This document shows, one piece after another, positions 36,606 through 62,504 of a stretch of DNA of 64,000 nt; within the stretch, counting starts at the first letter, position 1, and every line of letters starts with the position of its first letter. The stretch spans positions 248,001-312,000 of the forward strand of contig JAAVTG010000023.1 of NCBI GenBank assembly GCA_011947345.1, in the 5' to 3' direction. Made by a program: the position numbers and the translations under genes. A model generated the notes under the pieces. That model did no database searches. It worked only from the letters and a program-made list of their open reading frames with translations, and was not told where the DNA came from. Origin of the DNA: Phytophthora quininea. Lineage: Eukaryota; Oomycota; Peronosporomycetes; Peronosporales; Peronosporaceae.

Positions 36606-36621
36606 GCTCATTCCGCAATCT
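36606..36621 (+). promoter_or_regulatory. Inr/FPR core promoter of malate synthase
   Basis: GCTCATTCCGCAATCT matches the oomycete composite core promoter GCTCATTYYNCAWTTT with one mismatch. It lies 60-75 bp upstream of the ATG at 36681. A short AC dinucleotide run (36660-36673) sits in the predicted leader. This is the best promoter match in the window. Confidence 0.7.
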
Positions 36622-36680
36622 GCCATCGAGCGCGCACCAGCCAAGACCAACCTCCTCACAACACACACACACAGACTGCC

Positions 36681-36977
36681 ATGTCGGAGCTGACCGTGAA
36701 CGCCGCCAACGTCCGCGTGCTGGGCCACGTCTCGGACTCGTTCCGCCGCGTGCTGACGCCCGACGCGCTGCGCTTTCTCGCCTTCCTGCACGAGCAGTTC
36801 GAGCCGCGGCGCCAGGCGCTGCTGGCCGCGCGCGTTCAGCGCCAGACGGAGCTGGACGCCGGCGTGCTTCCCGACTTCCTGCCCGAGACCAAGTACATCC
36901 GCGAGGGCGACTGGAAGGTGGCGCCCATCCCGGCCGACCTGGCCGACCGCCGCGTCGAGATCACGGGCCCCGTGGAC

Positions 36978-37010
<33 letters not shown>

Positions 37011-38288
37011 TCCAAGTGCTACATGGCCGACTTCGAGGATTCGACGGCCCCCACGTGGTTCAACCAGGTGGACGGCCAGGTGAACCTCGTGGACGCCGTG
37101 CGCAAGACCATCTCGTTCACGCAGCCGCAGACGGGCAAGAAGTACGAGCTCAAGGACCAGATCGCCACGCTGTTGGTGCGTCCGCGCGGCTGGCACTTGG
37201 ACGAGGCCCACGTGCTGGTGAACGGCCAGATCATGTCAGGCTCGCTCTTTGACTTTGGGCTCTTCTTCTTCCACAATGCTCACGAGTTGCTCTCACGCGG
37301 CTCGGGCCCGTACTTCTACCTGCCCAAGCTGGAGCACCACTTGGAGGCCAAGCTCTGGAACGACGTGTTCGTCGCTGCTCAGGGCTACTTGAGCATCCCG
37401 CAGGGATCTATCCGTGCTACGGTGCTCGTGGAGACCATTGTGGCTGTCTTCCAGATGGAAGAGATCCTGTACGAACTCCGCAACCACTCGTCGGGACTCA
37501 ACTGCGGTCGCTGGGACTACATCTTCTCGTACATTAAGAAGTTCCGCAACCACCCGAAGTTCGTGGTGCCGGACCGTTCGTCGGTGGGCATGACGACGCC
37601 CTTCATGGCTGCTTATGTGAAGCTGCTGGTGCGTACTTGCCACCGTCGCGGAGCTCACGCTATGGGCGGCATGGCTGCTCAGATCCCCGTCAAGAACGAC
37701 CCGGAGCTCAACAACAAGTTCATGGCGGCGGTCATGGAGGACAAGTCGCGTGAGGTCGCAGCGGGCCACGACGGCACGTGGGTGGCGCACCCTGGCCTGG
37801 TCAAGATCGCCATGGACGCGTTCGCCAAGATGTCGGGTCCCAACCAGATCTCGTACATCCCAGAGGCTGGCAAGGACATCACTGCTGCTCAGCTCATTGA
37901 GCCTCCGACAGGCAACATCACCTACAAGGGGCTGGAGGAGAACATTGACGTCTCGCTCGTCTACACGGAGGCCTGGCTGCGTGGCAGCGGCTGCATCCCG
38001 CTGCACAACAAGATGGAGGATGCCGCTACGGCCGAAATCTCGCGTGCTCAGGTGTGGCAATGGATTCGTCACAGCTGCAAGACGGTGGAAGGTAAAGTGG
38101 TGACGAAGGCGCTAGTGCTTGACATCTTGAAGGAGTGCGTCAACAAGCGCTCTTTGAACGCCGCTGCGGGCAACAAGTGGGCTCTTGGCGGCGAGGTGGT
38201 GGGCAAGGTGCTCACGGGTGACGACATGGTGGACTTCCTCACGCTTCCGTGCTACCCGCGCATTGTGCAGCTCGGCTCGAGCATCTGA
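36681..38288 (+). CDS. malate synthase
   Basis: Condenses glyoxylate and acetyl-CoA to malate in the glyoxylate cycle, needed for growth on fatty acids or acetate. An intact 535-residue single-exon ORF, the usual length for form A enzymes. Signatures: DFEDSTAPTW, RPRGWHL, CGRWDYIFSYIKKF, RGAHAMGGMAAQIP, HDGTWVAHPGLV, and HNKMEDAATAEISR containing the catalytic Asp. The 5' third is very GC-rich at third codon positions, unlike the long frame-broken genes nearby, consistent with high expression. The C-terminus reads LGSSI, so no SKL-type peroxisomal signal is seen; location is uncertain. The gene has a good core promoter. Confidence 0.95.
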
Positions 38289-39466: not shown

Positions 39467-41141
39467 TTACCTGGACAAGTTTCTGCTGCTGGCGCGGAGG
39501 GAATTGGACGAGTTGTATCGCGCTTGGTCAGCTTCTTGACGAGCTCGCTCAAACTCTTCTTGCTGCAGAAGACGGGCTTGCTGCTCAGCCATCCTCAACT
39601 GCTCGCGGTCTTCAGCTAGCACGAGTTCGCGCACAGTGTAATCGTCGATGCGACCGACCTTTTCGATGGGCACACGATGCTTGAGCTTGGGTAGAAGCCA
39701 CAACATCGCGTTCGGGTCGCTGTACGACTCGTAGAGCCGAGGATCCGACACGGCCTTGACATTCGAGTACGGGTCCAACATGAAGATTAGGCTGGGGTCG
39801 ACGCCAACCTCTTCGTACGCCACGATGTCCGTTGGGCGGTTGCCGAAACCTGCCACGAAGACAGGATGTTCTATCACTCGGCCAGCGTGGATTAGTGTGA
39901 GCTGTAGCTCGTTTAGCACTTGGATTTTGAACAAATGAGGCGTCTTGTTCACCACTTCGGTGAACAGAGCACCAGTGAGTCCTGTCGAGTTGGTGATCAG
40001 CACTCCTGGTGGGAGCGGGATCGACTGTTGCACAGCGTTCTCCAAGTGTGTTCGAGAGGCTGATGCCCAGTCCAGCGGCCGCGCTGTGAGGTACACGATC
40101 CGCATGCCCAGCTCGTGCAGCTTGGTGAAGAAGTCACAAGCCCCGGCATGTAGAAAATCGTACTGGCCCAGCCTCAACGTGCGGATGTGGCCTTCCACAT
40201 CGCTAATGGTCAGTGTACCGTCCAAGTCGACCACCACCGCCGACTCGTTGGGCCCCCAGAGGTGCAGTTTTGCATCGATGTAACGCACTGTGTTAGTATA
40301 CTTTTGATAGTGCTCGAAGCGAACATGATTCGGGTGTTCCTCGGACAGATCGGCAAACAGCAAATCTTCTGGAGGGATGATGACTCCGCCCGTGATGAAA
40401 ATGCACCGCCCACGCTCTTGCAGCTCCATCTTGGTCGGTAGTTCCTTCCCGTTGACAAGAATGCGCACCATGTCCCCCACGCCAGCCTGGTAGCTGGACC
40501 GGAATCTCGACCACGAGAAGGAAACGTGCCAGGACGTCGTCAGATACTTCCCATCCGTATTCTTCACAGCCACGATATCCACCGCATTGCCCGCCATCTT
40601 GTATGTCGGCGGCGTCGTCTCGCCCTGCATTGCAGCCACCTGCAGAGCATTGCTGTTGGCACGCGGCAATCCTCCACGGAACGAGCCTGTAGACGACGCA
40701 TCATTACTGGAGCTGTCACTGCGATCAAGTCCACGTGACGACGGGAACAATTCCTCCTCTGCAGTCTCCACACTATTAGTCTCTCTGTGTCTGTAGTCAT
40801 TGGGAACAGCTCGTAATTCCCTGGAGAAACAGGCTGCGCTTGAGCGACAGGCACTTCCCCAGGTCCTCCTTCCTCCATGGGAGCGGTACTGGCCATAGGA
40901 AACACGCTCTTGGTCACTGCGGGCGTGGCAACAGGGACGGACGGTCCGCAACCGAAGAGATCGTACGACTCGTCGTCTAAGGCGCCTGTGGACACTGATT
41001 TGACCGGCGCAGGCGGCGCAGCAGGCAGCGGTGGACCGCCGAAGAGCTGCATGGCTTCCTGGTCGTCCAGCGCACCAGTGGACGCGGCCTTCACGGGCGG
41101 GGAGCTGAGGAAGGCGACGATAGCTTGACTGCAGAGTCCAT
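39467..41141 (-). CDS. lipin-family phosphatidate phosphatase
   Basis: Lipins dephosphorylate phosphatidic acid to diacylglycerol. A 558-residue protein after restoring one base at the A pair near 40800 and one C in the run 41099-41102; the corrected length is divisible by three. Residues about 30-70 carry two copies of STGALDD...LFG. An N-LIP-like domain follows (GNAVDIVAVKNTDGKYL, then ILVNGKELPTKMELQE). The LNS2/HAD catalytic domain has the DxDxT motif in VVVDLDGTLTISDVEGH, then IVYLTARPLDWA and ITNSTGLTGALFTEVV. The C-terminus is a Gln/Arg/Glu coiled coil. N-LIP and LNS2 are only about 70 residues apart, much closer than in animal or yeast lipins. Divergent from the ARM gene at 41311. Confidence 0.8.
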
Positions 41142-41310
41142 GGAGGTGAGGCGGGCCACGCACTTCGAGGTCTGGGGAAGCTCAGAACAGCGAGCTTCGT
41201 CCACGATAGCCGTTATCTTGTCGCAGACACGTACACCTGGTTTTTATGCTAAAGTTTACCTGATTTTATGAAAATAACGTTGAAGTTAATATTTGGAACA
41301 GAAACTTCCG
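41142..41310. promoter_or_regulatory. divergent promoter region, lipin and ARM gene
   Basis: The two starts are 169 bp apart and face away from each other, so this AT-rich stretch must serve both genes. No strong Inr/FPR match was seen. Confidence 0.4.
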
Positions 41311-45208: not shown

Positions 45209-48200
45209 TTACAGACAATCAAAAGTCTGGATATGCATGCTCGATCCGCTGAAAACATGTCGTTCGACCGGCAGCGAGGTTACGACACAAAGGTTAGTCT
45301 CTGAGTGGTTTGATTCCCCACATTCACGAAACAGCGGACATAAAAACTCGGTTTGGTTGTTTTTCTCCTCCTGTCGAAGAGCTTGACGGATCATGTCTAG
45401 TCCACGAGTTTTGTCCGCTGTTTTGAAGGGTGTCGCTGGGGCTTCGTTCTTATTCAGTACACACGCGCTCGAAATCTGTAAAACCACTGGGATACCCTCA
45501 GGAGAAATTGAAGAGCGTCGACGTAGTCCTTTGGAGTCAAGAACTTGGAGTTGTAAGTGCCCCGTGACTCGTAGTCCTGTGAAGAAAAATCTGTTTTCCT
45601 TTGTCGTTGTTGGGGAACCAGTCGTGGAGGATCCTCGAAGAGCGCGATGACTCGTAAACAGTTCGGGCCACACACCACAGCACCGACATGGTTGCGGAGA
45701 AAATGTTGGTGTACCGCCTCAAAGACGTACTGCATATTCCATAACCATGGCTGTTAGACTTGTGCGTCATCAACCAGTAAAAACAGCACTAAATTACGAA
45801 CCTCGGATCCTCTGAATTTGTCTAGTGGAAGCTTTTGAGGACCTTCCTCCGATTCCAGTAACGATGAAAGAGTCTTGAACCGATTCAGCAAGTGCTGCTG
45901 GAATTGATCGAGACTGCAGGTTTGTGCAGAATCTAATCGGAGAAGCTCAAGCCAGCGACCAGGGACTCGGTTCGCTTTCAGGTCGTCAAGCAGCCGCTCG
46001 ATATACGAATCTAGCGGTAGTCCACGATGAGTTACCTACAGACAATTGACAATTAGCAAGCAGCAGAGGTGACTTAACCACAACATACCATTTCCACCCG
46101 CTTCACATCCCGCAAAAGCGCTTTCCGAATTTGCTCGAGGGCACTCAATTCGTGTTCTATCAGTGCTATGATAGGTTTGCGATATTCAAATCCACTAGAT
46201 TGCCGTTTCTGGGCTGACGCATCTAAGCTTTTTAGCAATGACGAGATTGTTTCCAGTAACTGTCCGACCTCCACCTGTTGCGAAGATATCGCTGGGAGCA
46301 AGTCCTTTGGTAGTGTGTATCCTCGATTAGCAAGCCACGTAGCTAGCTGCATCACAGTTTGTTTAGACCGGTCCCGACGCTGGTTTTGCGGATCCCACAG
46401 GGATGGAGTTTCAAAGGATTGAAGCCCCTTAGCTGTTAGCGGATCTTTCACTAGTGGTCCGCATGATTCGCCGGGCCAAAACCGAGGGATGGCACTGAGA
46501 ATTGATAGCCACGGTAGTGTTGCTACTTTTCAATGGCAAATACAGCCTCTGGGATCGTCATTCGAGCAGCATCCGAAGTGGCATCGTGCAAGATTTCATC
46601 AGGGTTTCTTGGCCATGCATTGACCACCAGGTCGAGGCAACTTTTGATCAATAGCTTGTCTTGGTGGTCAGTAACCTTTGAAGAATAGGTATTATCAATC
46701 AGACTGTGAAGCGATAGTTCATTCCACGTATTATTTCCACAACCACGGCTTGCTGCAGCTCCATCGGCTTTGCGAATGATCAGAGATCGAATAACTGCAC
46801 AAAGCTCAGTGTCGCCAAACTCCACTCTCTGTTTCCACTGCGCAAACGGAAAGTGATCTCGACTGGAAACGATGGCGTGGAAAACTCCAAGCTGTTTGAC
46901 GCGAGCTTCTTCGTATTCGTTCAATACCGGCCGAGCTGACGATGCTAACGAAGTTGAAACAGTACTGGAGAACGAAAACCTCTCGAGCTCGTGCTTGAGA
47001 ATAGCAAACGTGTGGTGCAAGCACCGCTTCAAGGAGAGAAAGCTTGTCCCCCATTCCCTTTGTGTGCCAATACGGCCTATTCTAAGGGATTGGAGAGGAT
47101 CGTTCAACTGTGAGGTTCCCTTTGACAGCGAGATCCACAGTCGAAAGTCGGAATGAGTCTGTCCATCCTCCAGCGATTCGTATATATTGTCCAGCTGCCT
47201 AAGACGGCCAGGGAATGCATGGAGATTTGGAAGTACAACCCAGTAGCCTTTCCCCATTGCTACACGCAAAAGCTAGCAAATTCAACCTCGTTAGCCTGCA
47301 AAAGCTGGACGGTGTCTGTGGGGTCCATGGTAGTTCCAGCTCGTTTGGAAACATCAACGACCGCGTCAACGAAATCAATTTCTGGTCGACAAAACACAAT
47401 CAATGGCGCTTTGGAGCTTGAAAATGATCTCCACAAGTAAAACAAGTCGCGATGACGATCAGGGGCCTGTGAAAATGAGGCATAAGACGCAGCAGTCACA
47501 ACAGTATGGAGTGCTGGTTTGTTTCTGTCTGGAGTCGCGAAACTTGCGCGTCTTGATGTCGCATACACTGTGTTAAGATGCTGTAGCTCCTGGGTGGCAA
47601 ATTCTTCGATTTCATAAAGGAAACGATACTGGTGGATCGCACTGGCAAGACACATCCGAGTAAAATTATCAAGAGCTATCGGCGGCTCCCAATCACACGA
47701 ACTACTCGTGCCGAGATCAACTAGAGCTTTCCAAGCGAGATGCCCCACTTCGGTGTTTTCCATACGTAAGATAAATTGTTGGAGCGCATTAGAACCTTCA
47801 GCTATATAACACACAGCAGACCACGTATCAGCTTTCATACCTGCAGGACGGAGAGCTAGCAAACGCTTTGAGGGCCGGCACGCATCCGAAACGCTAGAAT
47901 TTCCTTTACAATGAATAAAGGCTAATAGATGAATTAACAACTCCATATTCCGATTTTCCAGACGGCCAGATGTCGAGTCTTCGTTTGGTCCCGAACGTGA
48001 TTGCTCATATTTCACGTGGTCTTCTTGCGTGCGGCGTTCGCATATTCGAGAAGCCAAAATAAATCGAAACAACAGGCGATCCTCATCATCAAGATTCATG
48101 GTAACATATTGCTGGAAAGTGCTCGTAAAGCATGCCATTGTATCTTCCAAATGAGAATCGTTTCTATTGCTGCCTTCCCAGCACGAGATAATAAACGCCA

Positions 48201-51200
48201 CACCCATTCCAGTGAGAATGAGTTTAATTGACAGCAATTGTTAATCAAGAGGCTGGACTCACGCCACGCCAAGATGGCATCGATGCATCTTTTGCAACAT
48301 CAATGTAGCTCACAAGACTATCCAATGCGTCTGTACTTTCGTCACCACTTCTGCCTTTGTATTCTCCAGCGTAGTAACAGAACTTCGATTTGCTACGATG
48401 CGCAGCGCTTTGGCATTCTCTGCGTAGACTTGCTCAACACTTTCTGTGCTGAAAAATTCCAACAATTCATCTTCCAAGCCTTCGATTTGTTCGTCACATA
48501 TCACCTTTTCTTGTAGAAGGGCCTAATTTCGGTCAGCTCACGAAGACGTCCTTGAGACTCCAACAGCTTTTGCAAAGCTTGGGTTTCCACGAATGGAGCA
48601 CTCAACTCAAAGCGAATAATAGTGAGTTGGCTTGCATACCTGAATATCCACTCTGGAATATCCTCAGCATCCGTATAAACGAAGTAGATTCTTTTGCAAG
48701 CATCACTGCCGAACTCAAAAATCGGTGCTGCAAGTGTGGATGTACTAACTCTGGAGAGCAATGAATCCGCTGAAGCTACTTCGTTATTGTCATCCGTGGG
48801 TATGCACCAGCAACGGTAGCCTCCACTCTCGCGAGCATTTGAAGGTAAATCCTGATTGATTGTATCAAACTGGGCTCGCCGACTGGAACCAACAAATGAC
48901 TGCAACTCGGCCATACGCTCTTCGCAAAGATCAGTAATGATTACTGTAGCCTCTTGCTTGATGCCATTTTCAATGGCTTTCCAAAGATCGGCCGCTGTGG
49001 TAGAGTAACCACCACGGATAACGTTAAGTTTGCTAGATTTGTGATGCTTTTGCAGCCATTCCATACCCACGCCGTACGGATCAACGAACAGAGGCATCTG
49101 AAAGCACTGTAATGCCATGATGGCGTTTTCAGTTGCACTCTCATCATCAAGAGAGATGCCATTTATACTCAGCTTAGCAATGTCAGTTTGTCTTATTCGA
49201 AAAACCGTCTGCAGCGGTAGGCGCTTAGGAGAAGGTGTTATCGAGGTAGTCTTCATCTTGTCTTTCCAAATCTCATAGAGCTCACAACGTGCCGAATGGT
49301 TCAAATATGACGCATAGGCGATGACCGCGGTTGCAAAAAGTAAATCACCTTTCCAATGCTTTGAAAACTCCGTATAGAACCTGTGCTTGTACTTCCATTT
49401 TTCACGGGTGCTCGAAAGAACTTTCCACGCTGCATTTGTTAGATGCAATAGTGCGGTTGTATCTTGCAGTTTTTCGTCCACTCGTTGCCGTTCCAACTCT
49501 GACAATTCTCTCAATTGCGTTGTGTGTTCAGCCGAGGCAGCTTGAGAATAAATCTCAAGCTTACTTTTTACCACCTGTTCCTCTGCTTCTTTCAGTAATA
49601 TCTGTTCATGGCGCAGCTGAAGCAGTTTTGGTTCGGCAAGAACAAAATCGCGAGCAAATATCATACACTTTTGAGTCCATTCGCACAACACCCCGGCAAG
49701 CACATGAATTGACGTGAAGAGGCTCGAATCAAAATCAGGGGATGTGCAGACTGGAAGCAACGAGCCAACCATTTTCTCGGTTACACGGCTCGGGACATCA
49801 AATGTGACCAGAGTTTCCCAGAATGCTGGCGTTTGCAATCCCGCGGCAACATTATCCCAATAGTTCATGATGATTTCTTCAGGATCCATTTCATCTCGGC
49901 CTTCAATGGGCTGAATTTCGAGGATAACTCCGAGGCATTCTGCAAGCTGGTATATAGACGATGGAACCTGCTTTAGAGAAACGAATTCTTTGATAAGCTT
50001 GAGTCTGTTCACTGCTTCTGCATTGACTACGAGTTCAATGGTTTCTACTTGTTCTGTACTCGAGGTTTCCTCGGATGCTTTTTCTTCTTCCTCGTCCGCT
50101 TTGAGCTCATGTTCATCTGTATTGTTAATAACGACAGCCTCATGGAATTTCCACAAGGACGCATTCAGATTTTCGAATTCCAATTGAGAATCCTTTATCA
50201 AGTCGTCGTATTCTTTTGTAATATTGTCGACCCGTTCACGTTGACTAGTCACTAAGACTGTCGCCAATTCAAGACCTTTCGTTACCTTGTCGGTTGTCAT
50301 TTTCTCTCGTTCCAAAGTGCCTGACATTCGCCGTCTATATTCCGTTTTTGCTGTGCTTCAGGTAGCAACAACTCGGCTTGAACTTGTTCACTTTTTAAGA
50401 TTTCCTCAGTTTCGTCGATAAATTGCATTCCTGCAGTAAATCGTGCCAGGTTCAACGAGACGGTGGCCTCAAGCTGTGGGTAGTGACTTCGAAATAGACC
50501 AATGTGATCAACAAGCATACTTGGATCCGCCGGTAGAGATCTTCCAGAATAATTGATGCCCTGTAGATCTGCTTTGAATTCAAAGGTGCGAGTGGCTTCA
50601 TATAATTGAACCGCGGCTTCAGCTATCTGTTCTCCACAAGCTTGGTCCATTGTGGCGTTGGATTGGGTCAGACATTTTCGAGCCACACTCACCAAAGCAT
50701 CAGATGACCATTCCCCAAAGTAATTCACGGCGCTGTTTCTCAAGATGTGGGGGTATCGCCAGAGAATTGGTGCCCAACTCACCCCAGTGTGAATACGTGG
50801 TGGAGACAATATTAATACTAACTGGAGTTTTAGTCTTACGTGACAGAAGAAATAGTCCATAATCGCATCTTAGAACGAAGAGGGCGTACAGCTGGATAAC
50901 CATCGACAACTCTTTGCGCTTCTTCTTGTAGAATCCCAAGCACTTCTTCATCTAAATCATCATGCGCAATTATATCTGACGACAATCGATGGCCCCCAAG
51001 AAATTGATCAATAATTCGATAAGGAGTTTCTTCTGGGTCGAGATACTCGTCTTTAACGACAAAAACGAGTGAGGAATCACGATTCCGGACGCTCTGAAGC
51101 ATTGCAGCACGCAAGATGGTATTCCATTTTTCTGTAATGCGGGTATTCCCCTTCTGCTCCATTTTTGTCGAGATTCGTTGCCTGCAATCGTCACATCAAC

Positions 51201-54200
51201 TTGTCGGGCAGGTATTGATGGAATGTTGTAGACACGAAAGGAGTTTTTGTTCATAAAGCACGCCAGCCTTGTTATTGTGACTGTCTTTCTTCCACGTGCT
51301 CCCAATAACAGAATCGCTTTTCTACCCATTCGCAACAGGCGACTGACTCGTAATACATGCTTAATAACGTAGGAGCATAGTATAATTTCAAGGGACTCAG
51401 CCTTACTCGAACCGTCAAGTCCGTCCCGACACATTGCCAGCATACTTCTTTCAACAGCAGCCTCTAACTTTGGCATTTCTGTAACCTCATGATATCCGTC
51501 GCGATAGACTCCCAACATACCGGTCTCGTCAACAAAAGAAAAATGTAGCTGGTTAGCAACCCAATTTTGTGTGACCGCTGAATTCTGTATCCCTGCGCTC
51601 TCCAAGCTTGCAGGAAAGAATGAATCATCTATCCCGAAGCTCGATAACGCAATATCTAAAACACGACGGTGGAAAGCGGCAGATTCGCTTGACTCCATGA
51701 GACTGTCTCCAAACACCCTTGCGCTTTCATGACACCAGAGTCGAGCCAAAGCCGGTTTCTCAGAAAGTAACATTGGAGGACAAACGTCGCAGCAAATATT
51801 TTTCACAACCTGGAATAGTTGAGCTGTGCGATAGTTGTAGTGTATCTTGAGTGAGTTGAGCAGCGTTTCTCGTGGAAGAATGCTGAAATCGCTGCTCGAC
51901 GTCAGTACTCGATATAACTTTACACTTGCTTTGATAATAATCAAGCGTACTTGGTCGGCTTCTTTTAACATTGAAGATGATGCTGCTGAATTAGAGATCG
52001 GAAGCTTTGTATCACCTGATCCAACGGACGATGCAGGACGATCCGTAGATAATGCAGGCGACGGAATTTTTCGCAAATGCTGGAGAGGTCTGCATCTGTG
52101 AAAGGTTGAAGAGCGACAGGAACGAACCTGTTCATTACGCGGACTAAGTCGGGCTTGTAAACAGGACTCGACTCCGTAATCAGTGTTTGAATTTGAACCG
52201 TCACGAACGGTAAAATATTACTGCAGGAGGTCAACTCATTTGTGTTGGGATCCACAACTGTGCCATATTCAGCTAGCATGCGAAATAATTCAAGAGCGGA
52301 GTCCATTTGACGGGTAGAGTCCAAGCAATGTAAGTCGTCGACGAATACGTAGATTGGCCGCGTCTTGTGTTCGGATGTACGAGTTGAAGCACCATTCAAG
52401 GGAGACGTAGACACCTCATCCTGACATGTAAATTCAGGTGCAGGTCCACTCCTTCCCTGGTGTTGTCGTTGAATTCTTATACGCTGGAGTGTTGTTTCAA
52501 AATACACCAACACATCACTTGCTTTCGTGTGAAAACCAACGTAAACGTCGTCAATCCCGGTCTCCTCCAACACCGTCGTCTCAGTTAAAACGGTCGATTC
52601 GGAGCCACTTGATTCAACTGAGGGGTAAGTGGTTCTTGGGCTTGCAATTTTGGAGCTGCTGCGTTTAAAAGCATCCAGGCTGAACCACATACTGTTTTTC
52701 CACAGTCTCGAGGGCCGATAATTGCGGTCGGGTAATTTGCTAGAAGCAGGAGGTTCGTTAAACAAATTGCCGCAGCAGAAGTACTTGTAGCAATAAACAA
52801 TCGATTTAGGCGCCCTCCAATACCAAGGTCTGCTTTCGGCGCATGACCACCTGGTATATTCGATGCAGGTAGTGCTTCTGATAGTGACCCTAATCTCAGT
52901 TTTGCCCAGCAATTGTAATACTCCGGCCAGGGTAGCCATTTCGAGCCAAAATCAACAGAGAACCCGTAATCATAAATCGTTTGACCGCCCGTTGTTGAGC
53001 CTGCTGTGACATTGGTGGTACTTGCTGCTAAAACGCCATTCGGGAAGTATAAAGTGATCACGCGCTTTAAAGTCGACTGGCCACTCCTTGGACCCCGAAG
53101 GATTAGATCGTACAGATATACGTGAAATTTTTGTCGTTCGAGATCGCTTGTGGTGTTTCCTACACCCCAGACAACTGCCTGTAGGAAAAGACAGTGCATC
53201 GCAGTTGATCGCTGCTTGTCACTTGTTAAACCAGTAAACTTTTTCCAGGATTGACTCAGGGAGCTGTGGAATAGCGCTAGCATCCACTGTACACGATTCG
53301 TTCGCTGATGAAAATCCCCGTACTTTTGAAAGTTTGCGCTGACAAAAGCCAATAAACTCGGCACAGTCTCCGCTACTAATGTGTCCAACACTGTGAAAAT
53401 TGGATCAGCAAACAATTCAAACTCATTCTTCTTGGATGCCTTCCAAGCTCGGTAGAGCTGTTCCCAACCATTGGTATCATCAGCAACAACTTCATTGAGG
53501 TGGACGTTTCCAACACGAGAGACAAATGATGGGGAAGCGTTTGCAAGTGAAGTACTTTCGAGCAGTATCTGTACAAACGGAGGGATGAATAACTTCTTCC
53601 CAGAAGCAAGCTGCAAACCACTTGAGGATCCAGTCACTATACCACGTAGCTCTTCAACAGCATATACTAGCTGTTCGCTCCACGTAGTATAGAGATCGCC
53701 ATCAAACACAAGCCACGTATGTATGCCCTCCGTTTTGTAGCAACGCTTCGCCTCGCAAATAAGCTTCGACAGCAGCATGTGAGAGTGATCTTCACACTCC
53801 AAGTCACATATCTGGCCAACACGAAGCGCACGGGGACATATTACAACGCATTTTGTCGGTGCCAGAAGTGCAGCGTCCATAGAATTATCAACGTCGTAAA
53901 AGTTGTTTGTCCGGACATTGTTTCGCCGTTCTTCAATTCGTTTTTGAGCTACATGGGTGACCGCCCGTGAAAGCGCTGCGTAAAGATTTGTTTTGCCTGT
54001 CTGGATATCACCGGATAGCACCGCAACACGATAGTTTCTCATCGTTTCAAATAGTTGCAGCGCCTTTTGCCCAAACTCGACTCCAAAGCGCTTCCAAGCG
54101 TTTTCGTATACGCGAATATAACTTTCAATGTCATCTTCAACAGTTTGTTGGGCCCTCATCCCACCACGCGCCATTGAATTCCCCGAGACACCCATCGTAC

Positions 54201-57200
54201 ACTACTCGAGCCCTTTAGATCTTTCGTCAACATCTCTGCGCTACAGTCACGAATTATAGCGTCAAGCAAGTAAAGGTTTTCCGCCGGAACCATGGAGCCG
54301 ATATTCTCTCGAAGTGCCGCACAAACGTGCCGCTCTTCGTCAGATTTGGCATTAGTCTCGGGCACTGCAGCGGTTCGGTGAAGCTCACTTGGTGAAGACT
54401 CGTCTTCTCTTCAGTGTCAGGTGGTATGAATGAGCCTTTCCGGTTACTTTGTCGACGCTCTTTTTCTAAATTATTCAATTCTGTTGCTCGCCGTGCGATG
54501 CTGTTAATTTGGCGCAGATTTAATAATTGCAGCACAAACACGTTACTTGCGCTGGATGGTTTAGATGGATTAAGCACAAGCTCAAACCCGCGACAACACG
54601 CAATCAAGACGGCAACGACAAGCTTAGCTAACACTCCAGCGTGCGCGAAATTCCCGCTCTGAAGCGCAAACTCAGCTAAAATGTCCATGCCGGGTGTTTG
54701 AATCATGACAGTGCGAAAGAAGTATCGTGCATCCTGCAGTAGACCAACTTTTGAATAGAATTGCTTGTGCGTTGTCAGCTCCAGCAAGAACAGTCCACCT
54801 CTTCGAAGTCGAACTTTTCTCCTGCTAGAAAGCACTGGGTCTTCATAGCAGCAAGATTGGTCATTACATGGGCGCACAGCATAGTAACCATTGATGCAGT
54901 CGATGCATTCGCAAGCTGCAAATTGTCGAAGCACAGCCATGCGCCTGACGAAGCTGTAGCCTTCACAAAGTCAAGCATATCATCAAACGAGAGTCTTCTG
55001 CTGGCGCATTGAAATATGACAAATAAACGGCCACACAAATGAGCAAATTGGGCACAGATTGTAGACTTTCCGACCCCTGCTTCACCCTCAAGACAGACAC
55101 CCTTCGCCGTTGTACTCGCTGCCTGTCCGATAGCATAATAGCAGCGAAGTGTCAGCGGCGTCACCAAAATTCCATGCGGTCCGTTGCCGAAATACTCGAA
55201 CCCATACGGCAAATGCGACGAAGTCATCACAGAAACACTAAGGACATTGTCGATGAAGTAATGGCGTGGTTGTGCCATCCAGGTCAAGCTAGGCAAGTTA
55301 TCACCACGATCTACGAGAGCTGTACTTGCATCGCTTTCGTCGACCCAGATCCCACCAATTTCATTGAGCACAGTGTTGCTGACATTGCAAAGTTGTGTCA
55401 ACAAGAGTATCACGTTTGCAAGTGTTGCTCTCGCGTGGGGATATGCAGCAACACGAATTTCTTTGCTGACAGCGTCAATATTGTCTTGTAGCGTGTTCGA
55501 AAGTTCACTCCAAGCCCGTCGTTGGTTAGGATTGCGGTTCGCTTGTTCCGATTCTGTTGTCCAAATGCAGCGAATTGCCACCAACAACGACTGCTCCGGC
55601 CAGATAAGGCACCATTTTCGAAATTCCTTGCGAGCGAGGTCGTTGGAAGCTGCACGAATCGAGGCATGTAAAATAGTTATCATGGAAGACTCCAGTTTCG
55701 GTAACCAGGTCGCCATCGGTGTGTCAGTCGTCACAATTGGGGAACCAAGTGGGAACGGCTCACCTGCAGAGCTCACCAGGGCTGTTATTTCATTGGATGC
55801 ATTGGTTTGAACACCATGGATACCTGGAAAACAGATCGAAAGAGATCTCCAAAGTTTTTCAGCGGTGGGCGTCTTCGTAAGGGATAGTGCAGTCACCAAT
55901 TCAGCGTCAGAAAGGAAGTAAAATCGTCCAAAACTTAATCGTTTTGCCTCCAGACCAATTCGAATGTCACTCTTGATTGTTTCCAATACCGCGAGGCATT
56001 GTTCCATGTTGGCAATAAGGGCTGTGGCAGGAGATTCTGAACCACCATCTTGGCGGTCGGATATAGCATTACGTACACGCAGTTCTTTGCAAGGAGGGTG
56101 ATGCCGGAGGGCAATATGGAAAGATCGGTACAGTTGAGCAGCACTACTGAAGAGGATCGCTTCTTTCGAGTCCATTCCGACAATGCCCGCCGCAAAAAAT
56201 GGTGTCAGTTTTCGCCATAAATTCTCATTGGTCTTTAGCAGCTCAATAATTTGACCAATTTCAGATACAAACGTTTGTAATAAGGCAATGTCCCTCACAA
56301 ATGGACCAGCATGGAACATACCTGACAATGCTCGAAGACGCAGTAAATGATCTTCTACAAGAGCAAGTACACTTTCGGCACACGATTTCTCAAGCGCTAT
56401 GTCCCAATCTTCGCTATTCTCATCGTTCGATACTATGAAGGTCGATAAGTCACCAGTTGAGACAAAGGAATGTCGTGATGGAACAAACCGGAAATACTTT
56501 TGCTCCCATTCACCATTCATTTCGACGAGAACTCTTTCGATGTGTTGCTCTTGGATTGCATTCGAACTAATCTCCACCACGTCATTCACAAGCTCAAACG
56601 CCCCGTTTTCAAGTAGTTTTAATAACGTAACAGGCTCGTCAGAACTAAAATCCAGCCCAATTAACTCTGATACCTCCTTCATGTGTCGTTCTTTCATCGC
56701 AGGGTTTTGTATAGCGACGATAAGCCGAACGTTTTCACGAAAGTCTGTCATCTGCTTTCTCACAGTCTCAGCCGTGATGGCAGCAGCAGCAGAATTGAGT
56801 AGAAGAACACTTGATACATTTGCAACAGTCGTAAGCATTTGTTGTAGCGCTTGTAAACCTTCCTTTCCTGGCAGCTCGAATACATTGCCGCGCAGCCAAC
56901 GCGAGTTCATCTCACGAAACTCTCTTATAGTTTTCCATAGCTGCTCATATGGCGCCATCTCCTCGGCGATATCATCCAACTTGCCAAAATCCGTGGGCTT
57001 CCATTGTAGTTTCTGTTCTTCTTTGGAGATTGTGTCCATCGCTTGTCGAAAGATGAACAAGTTATCCTTCATTTTCGCTAGCTGAACGACATAAGTTGCA
57101 GCATGCCGCAGGTCCCCTTTTTGCGAAGCCTTTAATTTCCGCCTCAAACTCCTCGAGTTCAGCTTGAAAGCGGGACCTTTTAGCAATAAACATTGTTTCA

Positions 57201-60200
57201 ATCCGTGCACGCTCGTTAACCAATGCAACCTCAGCTTCCTTCAACAGTTTTTCGATCTGACCGCGCCATTTTACAGTCTTCGCCGTCGAAGATAGCAGCT
57301 CCTGAGATAGTTGAAAGCCATTTGATGCAGTAGGGCTGTTTGCTTCGGCTTCATGACCGGTAGATAGTGTTCCAAGATTATTGTCAAGTTCAATATTGCC
57401 AATGTGCATGTTCTCCCGTTCAAATAACAAAAATCGAAGCCGCTGCTTAATGACATTTCCCTATCTTGGAGTTCGTCAAGCTTGACGGCCTTCAGAGAAT
57501 GTACAAATGCCTCTGCATCCACCAGTTCATACAAATCCAACGGCTTCTTGGCTAACCGAGCTGCAATTTCTTTGTATTGCTGCCGTAGCTCCGCGTTCAT
57601 ACGGCCTGTTCTCTGCTCGAAAGCTTCCAGTAGGCGGATTGTCCATTCAGCAAGATCCGTGTGTAGTTTTGAATTGACAATGCTACAATCAACAGAAAAT
57701 AGGCCAAGTTGCTGAGAATGCCTGTTATCGATAGCAAGCTGCATTGCAGTCGTCTGAACACGCTCCATTTCAGTTCGATAACTCTCCAGCTCGTTGTTTT
57801 CTTCCAAATGGAAACAATCAACGGAGTTTACGTAACGATGCGTGAGTGCGAAAGTCTCATACTCGATCTGTAATCTCCGTAAATATGTCAGGTTGTCTTC
57901 AATGATCGCTCGAATTCGTATTGTAGCAACGACGATATCGTCTTCTTGGGATACCACATTCCACAAAAACGGCGAGGACGTGTTTGGCAGCAGCAGGCTC
58001 CTCGAACTGCGTCTCGATTCTGCCGAGATTACAAAATAATTTAGGTACGTTGTGAAGAACATTCAACAAACGACTTGGGATATCCACGAGCGGGTTCCGA
58101 AACTGTTAGGCATATCAAGGTTAGATCATGTAAAAAATAGGGTCGTCGCTACTGTAGGAGCAAGAGTACGTATACGTACTTGAATCTGCCCGTCCTGTAA
58201 AATTAACGTTGTGAGCAGACCCGAACGTCGAATGCTGAAGTCGCTGTCTTGGTTTCCATCCTTAATTCCAAACTGCTCGAAGAAGTTTACGTAGGCTTGG
58301 ACAGACTTAATAATCAGTGAGCGGATCTGCAGTGACATGACGGCTGCTACGGTATCGAATAAATGTCGAAGCCTAAAGTTGACAGCCGCCTCCGACGCGT
58401 GGATAGAAAAAGTCTCTGCTTTGATAGCACCCTCGAACATCGTTTTTGTCACCGCATACCACTTCTCCATGATAAATGATTTCATTCTCGCCGAGTATGC
58501 GAGTTGTGCTCGCTCAAACTCGAGAATGCCAATGGGTTCAGTAACAGCGCTGACATCTGCACTCGGAACATCAATCAAAGTGATTGATGATAATAAGTCA
58601 TGCCACATATATCGAAGTGCTCGAATCTGTACATTTGACAATACCAGCAATGACATCAGCTTTGATTGCACCCGCTTTCGACGGATGGCCTTGCTTTGAT
58701 GAGCTCCCATTCGAAACATCTCGTCAACTAGTTTTCCACCTCCATGAGGTGTGTTAGATCGTTTTAAAGCTTTGGAAGATACAGCCATCATTGGCTTCTT
58801 AACGACAAGGGTTTTCATATCTTCAGTACAACCATTCAGACCGTCACTGCTTCCCCACTTCCACTTATCGGGCAGAAGAGCATGCGCAGGTACTCCATAA
58901 GGGATTCCAAGTCGAATTCGTGAAGCCTTCCGCTTTAGTAAATAGTTCAAAATTGCCTTCTTAATGCTTGCGTAATAGATATCAACGAACTCTTGGTGTG
59001 TTGCTTCCACCACACTCTCAACAGATACTCGACGATCGGAGACGCACTTGACGGCTGATGAAAAATTTCTTCTCAACATCACGGGAAATGGGGGCGACGA
59101 AGCACCGGTCAATCAGATCAGAATCGGACAAATACTCAAAATATCGTTTCTCGGATGTTGTTTCAGGTATCAATTCGTTCCGTTCTTCATGACAGTCTCT
59201 TGGCCTCTCAGCGAAAATCAGACCTCCTGTTGATCGTACCGAATGAGAAGCCACTTTCTCCGACATCAAGAATGCTGCAGTCGCCGTAAAATTGGCCCCG
59301 ATTCGATTCGAAGGAACCAAACACGAAATATTTTGATCCGGTTCAACGCAAATCGTGCGACTAAGCCGATCAAACAATTGAGGAGGCATCAGCGCTCCTC
59401 TTTTCCCTGAGGAAGCGCCGAGATGTCATCTTTTTAGTCTGTTCATCACCCACGGTTTCTGCAACAACCACGGCAGCACTGACACGACTAGTCAATGGGC
59501 TTGCCGGGCGTTGATGTCGTTTTTGAAGTTGTGTTGATCGAGGAGATGAACGCGCACCAGCAACGACTGCCAAAGATGTCGATGGAGGGCGTGGATTTGA
59601 CGAACCAAAAGAGAAATCAGGCACATCCTTGGAACGGTCGATAACGGGATTCAGTTGAATAGATGGAGAAAAGTTGATCCCGACAAGAAAGAAAACCTAC
59701 AAAAAGTAAGCGACATTTGTGTTACCCCTTCGACAGTAAAAAGTATTCAACTTACTTCGATTTTTGCACGAGCGGTGTTTGAAGAGCATCTTGAACACGT
59801 AAGTTTCGTTTGACAACGCTCTCACCAGTTCGGATTTCGTATGCAATATTTGGCACAGAATGCTAAAGTCGACAGAGAGCCTTTAGCCACACTGACGATG
59901 CGTTGGACACGGTATTTATCCGTACCGAGTCGCGTGGGGAGAGACGCCGCTGAAGTATGCGATTTTCGCACACAATTACACCGATACCAATGTTGAGCTC
60001 TACCTAATAAATCCATCGAACAATGATGCATCAGAGCAAATAGTCATAAGCAAAAACGAAGTGAAAGAAACCACTCCTACCTTTCCGGATCGGCTCATGG
60101 CGTGGCCCATCTTTTGAATTACCGCTCCAAGCCATTCTTTCGCTCTACTTGTATCGGCAGCATTACAACATGAAGCCATTTCCAAGTAGCTGAAAGCAAA

Positions 60201-60876
60201 AAGGTCCCCAATATTCTGCTCCCTCGAAATACTTCTTCTCGTGGCGTTGGTATTAGGAGCGGTAAGCTCGGGCAGACCTGGATTTGGAATGGAGAAAGGA
60301 AGGCTCGAACCAAGCGTTGTGTCCGCAACATCAACATCTACTTTGAGGCCAAACCTTTCAAGAAAGTGTTTGTCCGGTTCTGGGCGGCAAATAAGCTCGG
60401 TAAGATGGTTTGCCCGTGTATTGATTACAGGACATCGACTCACCGAATAATGGCATTCGAATGCCTAGTGGTTGGATCCGTACGAAAAATGTGCCGAAGC
60501 CTGGGATCGTAGCAGGCACTTCCATCGCTATCTACAGCGAAAAACACAAGAAATTAGGCCAAGAACATATACAGAACGATCAAGCGTTAGCTGGCGTACC
60601 TGCGTTTTCACCCAGTCACACAAGAATTTCCACACTTGCCAGCACTCCCCAGTAGTCATCGAGACCGACGTCAGCAGGGACTGGGGGTCTTGCGGGCCAT
60701 AACGCGCGAAGACTCTTGGCACTGCACGAAAGGTAGCGAGTCTTCCGGTACGCTGTCTCTATCTGCACTGGACAAGCCCCGGCTTCCTAGACGCCGCCGA
60801 CTTCTCGCGTTACCACGTGACGAGAGAGCAGCAAAATTGTTGCCTCCCGCACGACTTCCTCTTGCGAAGACTCCAT
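45209..60876 (-). CDS. divergent dynein heavy chain with N-terminal HU (CCDC81-like) domains
   Basis: A motor subunit of roughly 4,900 residues in many exons and frame segments. From N to C: a disordered start; an HU-like domain pair (see 59850-60720); a linker; a dynein tail with FVDIYYASIKKAILNYLL (near 58990), typical of single-headed inner-arm chains; AAA1 with Walker A GEAGVGKS (about 55071-55094) but Walker B reading WLCFDN; AAA2 with GDIQTGKT (about 53990-54012) and WLVFDGDL; AAA3 with GPRDCGKT (about 52695-52718) and VFVDDL; AAA4 with a degenerate GARGRKT loop (about 51285-51305); the stalk and microtubule-binding region (about 49450-50330); AAA5 with FVDPYGVGMEWLQ; AAA6 with IVFCRPEID and HSDFRLWIS; a C-terminal region with LCPLF. 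Joins are partly introns (for example at 46023-46089) and partly one-base breaks, not all resolved. An ATG at 60876 is the likely start. Location expected: flagellar axoneme. Confidence 0.75.
59850..60720 (-). other. HU-like (CCDC81-type) N-terminal domains of the dynein
   Basis: Splicing GT-AG introns joins the sequence CWQVWKFLCDWVKTQ to IAMEVPATIPGFGTFFVR, the helix plus IPG-GTF pattern of the HU fold in CCDC81 proteins. A second unit has EWLGAVIQKMGHAMSRSGK joined across an intron (about 60079-60006) to VELNIGIGVIVCENRILQ, again the HU layout. One G must be dropped from the GGGG near 60652 to connect the first helix with its upstream sequence. The following segment (HSVPNIAYEIRTGESVVKRN) continues without a stop toward the dynein tail. 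The assignment rests on motif recognition only. Confidence 0.55.

Positions 60877-60982: not shown

Positions 60983-62504
<1,522 letters not shown>

What the first reader, a model, noticed from the sequence alone, without database searches (positions are those of the whole stretch)
58126..60876. HU (CCDC81-like) domains fused to a dynein heavy chain
The minus-strand reading continues from two HU-like units (IPGFGTF and a second unit with VELNIGIGV) through a disordered Ser/Arg/Pro segment into a dynein tail with FVDIYYASIKKAILNYLL, with no convincing stop-start pair between. CCDC81-type HU domains occur in centrosome and cilium proteins, so joining one to an inner-arm dynein would give the motor its own docking module. 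I know of no described dynein with this N-terminus.
Basis: partly seen in the sequence, partly recalled or inferred. Interest (0 to 1): 0.75.

Follow-up and report, generated by a model that had tools for sequence, protein, structure and literature searches.

The report
Tandem-HU dynein with altered active site
In water moulds (oomycetes) a flagellar dynein heavy chain carries two HU domains of a kind otherwise seen in proteins of the flagellar microtubule doublet, and the main ATP-burning site of this dynein looks disabled, so it may be an anchored linker rather than a motor.

Summary
The fusion is real and not private to this genome. On the minus strand, 60876 to about 45224, lies one dynein heavy chain gene beginning with two CCDC81-type HU domains and a partly conserved linker. 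Relatives with the same order occur in Phytophthora, Lagenidium, two Pythium species and Aphanomyces: 20 of 39 clusters examined hold HU1, HU2, linker and tail in one model. Contrary: 3 clusters annotate the HU pair alone, and 11 dynein-sized models lack it. The predicted HU fold best matches chains of flagellar doublet microtubules, among them CCDC81. The window copy shows 17-19 frame changes without room for introns and few stops, all near segment ends; the neighbouring RuvB-like gene is broken too, so assembly error is likelier than decay. An HU-dynein link may already be in print (Burroughs 2017, not held, recalled). Docking and the non-motor role are inferred.

The parts
60835..60876 (-). 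probable start: MESSQEEVVREATI, matching a conserved N-terminal peptide (VVRESxIFAALSPRGY in several orthologues)
60336..60659 (-). HU domain 1 over three exons (60659-60600, 60531-60445, from 60380)
   Evidence: PF14908 below cut-off; ortholog alignment; exon map; fold of an orthologue
59926..60212 (-). HU domain 2 (about 60212-60078, and 60003-59926)
   Evidence: PF18289 below cut-off; exon map; fold of an orthologue
59439..59862 (-). linker, first part: GESVVKR block, then Ser/Arg/Pro-rich segment; contains an intron (about 59755-59697) and a frame change
59054..59389 (-). linker, second part with the conserved block LFDxLSRTxCVEPDxN...PSNRI; several residues invariant in the 10 orthologues of alignment A1
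56980..59022 (-). dynein tail
   Evidence: tblastn with orthologues; the DNAH7 match of P0004 begins in this part
55651..56979 (-). dynein linker region (DHC_N2)
   Evidence: PF08393 E 3.2e-65
54602..55206 (-). AAA1 module, degenerate, with a frame change near 54814
   Evidence: PF12774 in two frames; 75 bits for the first part
55060..55086 (-). AAA1 Walker A GEAGVGKST, intact
54922..54939 (-). AAA1 Walker B WLCFDN: Asp-Asn instead of Asp-Glu
50300..54201 (-). AAA2 to AAA4 modules, with frame changes
   Evidence: PF17852, PF12780 and lid matches
48504..50357 (-). stalk and microtubule-binding domain, start of AAA5
   Evidence: PF12777 E 7.9e-10, PF12781 E 1e-9
45224..48503 (-). AAA5-AAA6 and C-terminal region
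   Evidence: PF03028 and weak AAA_lid_11; tblastn to residue 5110 of 5112 of P0015
60983..62436 (-). neighbour: RuvB-like/TIP49 gene (not part of the dynein) with an exon-internal frame change; used as assembly-quality control
   Evidence: PF06068

Best explanation
A single oomycete gene encodes an axonemal dynein heavy chain, nearest by best hits to the single-headed inner-arm class, whose N-terminus carries a tandem pair of CCDC81-type HU domains and a linker of about 250 residues. Shown: the domain order, its conservation from Aphanomyces to Phytophthora, the HU fold of an orthologue by prediction, and the missing AAA1 Walker B glutamate. Inferred: the HU pair docks the protein on or in the doublet microtubule (where CCDC81-type proteins are solved in other lineages), the linker spans to the dynein tail, and the head, which still carries a stalk and microtubule-binding domain but should not hydrolyse ATP normally at AAA1, acts as an anchored cross-link, brake or regulator between doublets rather than as an ordinary motor. 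I hold the identity at about 0.9 and this mechanism at about 0.45.
Against: No RNA or protein evidence was available. 3 of 39 clusters (P. ramorum, P. cinnamomi, P. cactorum) annotate the HU pair as a separate short gene, and 11 dynein-sized models begin in or after the linker and lack the HU pair, apart from 19 residues of HU2 in P0017. Gene predictors over-merge here: P0003 and P0016 also swallow the neighbouring RuvB-like gene. HU Pfam scores shown lie below the curated cut-offs, and full-length scans at E up to 0.001 list HU2 for P0020 and P0028 but no HU model for P0005 and P0021. The structure model has mean pLDDT 61.5, high only in the two HU cores, and the other four models score 40-58. 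Docking on the doublet rests on fold analogy. Loss of the glutamate does not prove loss of ATPase.
Confidence: 0.55

Rival explanations
1. Same fused gene, but an active inner-arm motor: AAA1 still hydrolyses with other residues, and the HU pair is simply an extra docking module.
For: Walker A is kept in 26 of 29 readable orthologues; the AAA lids, stalk and AAA5-6 are recognisable.
Against: Asp-Glu in 0 of 29; in five clusters the aspartate position itself is T, A, C or R, and in four it is E. The sensor-1 asparagine and the LPDN stretch of solved dyneins are not matched in the P. infestans piece. Orthologue models with AAA1 in one piece score 100-149 bits against PF12774 (P0005, P0020, P0028), while the ten loci of this genome that match positions 1-327 in one frame score 469-529.
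Confidence: 0.22
2. The HU pair serves transport or assembly (basal body, centriolar satellite or cargo adaptor) rather than docking on the doublet.
For: Human CCDC81 is linked to centrosomes, and Burroughs 2017 proposed a cargo-adaptor role (both recalled; the paper is not held).
Against: The first 8 fold matches are doublet microtubule structures, though what has been solved by cryo-EM biases that list.
Confidence: 0.18
3. Two neighbouring genes, an HU protein and a dynein, merged by reading and by gene predictors.
For: Three short HU-pair models; 11 dynein-sized models without the HU pair; merging with the RuvB-like gene happens in two models.
Against: Coding conservation continues through the linker in 10 aligned orthologues of at least four genera with no shared start. 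The short P. cactorum model P0035 is contained letter for letter in the fused models P0006-P0008 of the same species and ends where the window has an intron.
Confidence: 0.07
4. The gene is real and fused, but the copy in this genome is a decaying pseudogene.
For: 17-19 frame changes with no room for an intron, about 1.3 per kb; some other dyneins of this genome keep open frames of up to 1891 residues.
Against: Internal stops are 0 in 4328 codons aligned to P0005, 2 in 4646 to P0015, 2 in 4505 to P0008 and 1 in 4556 to P0016, all within 14 residues of a segment end. The neighbouring RuvB-like gene, expected to be essential (recalled), has an exon-internal frame change too, and several other AAA1 loci are split between overlapping frames.
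Confidence: 0.15

Closest known systems
Single-headed inner-arm dynein heavy chains (DNAH7, DNAH12, DNAH3)
   Same: tail, DHC_N2 linker, AAA ring with lids, stalk and microtubule-binding domain; best full-length PDB match DNAH7, E 1e-120
   Different: the DNAH7 match begins at residue 457 of P0004 and residue 208 of DNAH7: the HU-linker part stands in place of DNAH7's own N-terminus; AAA1 Walker B glutamate and sensor-1 motif lost
CCDC81-type tandem HU proteins of doublet microtubules (sea urchin CCDC81; T. brucei CCDC81 HU domain-containing protein; Tetrahymena IJ34 and CCDC81b)
   Different: part of a dynein heavy chain instead of a separate protein; only 13-20% identity to those four chains
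HU/IHF clades of Burroughs et al. 2017 (PMC5499826, not held)
   Same: recalled: defines the eukaryotic CCDC81 HU clade and mentions Dynein-VII
   Different: could not be read, so whether it shows this fusion is unknown

Membership tests
Dynein heavy chain | DHC_N2 linker, AAA modules, stalk and D6 region in order | tested here: met
   window pieces; full orthologues P0005 and P0020
Dynein heavy chain | AAA1 Walker A | tested here: met
   GEAGVGKST in the window; GxxxxGK[S/T] in 26 of 29 orthologues
Catalytically active dynein motor | AAA1 Walker B Asp-Glu | tested here: not met
   Asp-Asn in the window; Asp-Glu in 0 of 29 orthologues
Single-headed inner-arm class (DNAH3/7/12) | groups with this class in a phylogeny | tested here: inconclusive
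   best PDB matches only; no tree was built
CCDC81 HU domains | curated PF14908 and PF18289 cut-offs | tested here: inconclusive
   7 of 7 N-termini match both at E up to 1, but below cut-off in the member shown and in the window; PF14908 is precomputed for P0033 and P0034
CCDC81 HU domains | tandem HU fold as in solved CCDC81 | tested here: met
CCDC81 protein itself | separate protein without a dynein motor | tested here: not met
   tail and motor follow in the same model in 20 of 39 clusters; other HU-CCDC81 loci exist elsewhere in the genome
Microtubule inner protein | location in the doublet lumen | not testable with these tools
   needs cryo-EM or tagging

The most novel reading that the evidence does not exclude
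Oomycete flagella contain a conserved pseudo-dynein: a heavy chain that gave up motor function for a structural role, anchored by its own built-in HU pair of the microtubule-inner-protein kind, and forming a passive or regulatory cross-bridge between doublets.
Probability: 0.35. Interest if true: 0.8.

Novelty: new variant of a known kind. Interest (0 to 1): 0.57.

Why it matters
How each inner-arm dynein finds its place on the doublet is a long-standing question; a dynein with a covalently attached doublet-type module would make one such anchor directly visible and testable. A conserved dynein heavy chain without the AAA1 glutamate would also be a natural case of a motor turned into a structural part.

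Tried and rejected
Two-gene reading: kept only as a rival at 0.07. Scoring candidate introns between neighbouring frames without a reference gave many ambiguous sites and was replaced by comparison with orthologues. A PDB sequence search with the P. infestans HU region alone gave four weak hits, E 1.5-1.9, all NcdE; the profile gave three, two of them CCDC81 chains, at E 0.6-0.8, not significant; the fold search was the informative test. L008 (C264) was examined as a possible paralogue and set aside: matches of 19-33% identity, no P-loop found in its AAA1 piece. Paper searches: 10 of 10 used; no title or abstract start in those listings describes an HU-dynein fusion, but listings were partial (15 of 25, 15 of 86, 25 of 52) and the papers were not read through. 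The 'Walker B' hits in the passages of PMC12637542 and PMC11971395 were author names. PMC12399478 was seen in one passage. PMC2239267 was seen in outline and passages and PMC3471859 in passages; neither identifies this gene in the parts seen. No phylogenetic tree and no dN/dS was made (no orthologue DNA was to hand).

Full report
What is in the window. The minus strand from 60876 to about 45224 carries one large gene. Its upstream neighbour, a RuvB-like (TIP49) gene, ends at 60983. HU1 lies on exons at 60659-60600, 60531-60445 and from 60380; HU2 at about 60212-60078 and 60003-59926; the linker runs from 59862 to 59054; the dynein tail starts near 59022. Pfam finds HU-CCDC81_euk_1 and HU-CCDC81_euk_2 in the right order, both under the curated cut-offs, and then DHC_N2 (E 3.2e-65), AAA_6, an AAA lid, AAA_8, the stalk, AAA_9 and the D6 region in successive open frames.

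Is it one gene? A read-through query limited to its first 440 residues, with candidate lengths set by a 2422-residue protein, found 4 clusters, all Phytophthora, at 49-55% identity over 98-100%. A second search from P. infestans P0004 (residues 1-1050; only the 1862 candidates sharing most words were scored) gave 30 clusters, including Nothophytophthora, Lagenidium giganteum, Pythium brassicae, P. oligandrum, P. insidiosum and Aphanomyces stellatus (31% identity over the whole region). A third search, by profile and restricted to short proteins (205-653 aa), gave 7 clusters. Of the 39 clusters in all, 20 hold HU1, HU2, linker and tail in one model (HU1 partial in P0014 and P0016); 9 have linker and tail but at most a trace of HU; 4 are dynein without linker; 1 (P0032) has HU1 and motor pieces only; 5 are HU-only short models, 3 of them with both HU units. 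The length limits favour fused models in the first two searches and split models in the third. Against fusion: the three HU-pair models, the 11 dynein-sized models without the HU pair, and the over-merging of the RuvB-like gene in P0003 and P0016. For fusion: conserved blocks run through the linker in 10 aligned orthologues, with invariant residues in the block LFDxLSRTxxVE...SNRI, and no methionine column is shared by more than 6 of 10. P. cactorum is annotated both ways: its short model P0035 is contained letter for letter in the fused P0006-P0008 and ends where the window has an intron. I hold one gene at about 0.93.

What kind of dynein? The best solved relative of the P. infestans orthologue is DNAH7 (E 1e-120), followed by chains of entry 8glv (Chlamydomonas, recalled), DNAH12 and DNAH3; the DNAH7 match begins at residue 457 of P0004. 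No tree was built. The AAA1 module is degenerate: Walker A GxxxxGK[S/T] is kept in 26 of 29, but the Walker B pair is Asp-Asn in 19, Glu-Asn in 3, Thr-Asn in 2, and Ala-Asn, Glu-His, Asp-Asp, Cys-His and Arg-His in one each; Asp-Glu in 0 of 29 (5 of 34 rows were dropped as second hits in P0019 and P0022 or fragments of P0032). From the same genome I fetched 20 of the 68 AAA_6 matches, most of them the top-ranked ones: 19 have DEF (17 distinct sequences), and the exception is another divergent dynein on C264. Alignment to solved dyneins also shows the sensor-1 region replaced.

Is the window copy intact? Against P0005, 4328 codons align at 57% with no internal stop, 17 frame changes without intron room and 8 intron-sized gaps; against P0015, 4646 codons at 63% with 2 stops and 19 frame changes; P0008 and P0016 give 18 frame changes each, with 2 stops and 1 stop; these stops all lie within 14 residues of a segment end. 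A decaying gene with so many indels should also have gathered several nonsense changes (inference). The neighbouring RuvB-like gene has an exon-internal frame change as well. The break density, about 1.3 per kb, is high compared with open frames of up to 1891 residues in other dyneins of the genome. I judge assembly error likelier than decay, but cannot exclude decay.

How it may work. Shown: architecture, conservation, predicted fold, altered AAA1. Inferred: the HU pair docks on the doublet; the linker, with one strongly conserved block that could bind a partner, reaches to the tail; the head keeps a stalk but does not cycle ATP normally at AAA1, so it serves as an anchored cross-link or regulator. 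That an AAA1 Walker B glutamate change blocks dynein motility is recalled general knowledge.

Novelty. The listings of my ten paper searches show no described HU-dynein fusion, but some listings were partial, the key paper, Burroughs et al. 2017, is not held, and I recall its abstract linking CCDC81-type HU with Dynein-VII. NCBI already names the P. infestans protein a dynein heavy chain. What I did not meet in those listings and passages is the combination with a uniformly altered AAA1 site. I therefore file it as a new variant of a known kind.

Noticed in passing
G000:C264:116245-116871 (L008, L031): A second divergent dynein-like locus in the same genome: AAA1 piece with no recognisable P-loop and one in-frame stop; its matches to the HU-dynein are only 19-33% identical.
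   Followed up: partly
window 62436-60986: RuvB-like/TIP49 gene with an exon-internal frame change just after Walker A, suggesting indel errors in this assembly.
   Followed up: yes
G000:C83:98378, C371:33137 and C55:19926, C23:326712 and C471:30664 (L004-L007, L009-L011): Other HU-CCDC81 loci, perhaps three distinct kinds; C371/C55 and C23/C471 score alike and may be duplicated haplotypes.
   Followed up: partly
window 59383-59246: Within the otherwise variable linker, a block LFDxLSRTxCVEPDxN...LxPSNRIxxNFT is strongly conserved in oomycetes; possible partner-binding motif of unknown role.
   Followed up: no
window 60876-60835: Conserved N-terminal peptide (VVRExxIFxxLxPRGY in orthologues) ahead of HU1, also present in Pythium oligandrum and, with F for Y, P. 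insidiosum.
   Followed up: no
window 36609-38285 (+) and 39470-41212 (-): Malate synthase with an intact frame, and a lipin/LNS2-type protein.
   Followed up: partly
P0022-P0025, P0027: Unnamed relatives in which even the aspartate position of the AAA1 Walker B pair has changed, suggesting continued loss of constraint on this site.
   Followed up: no
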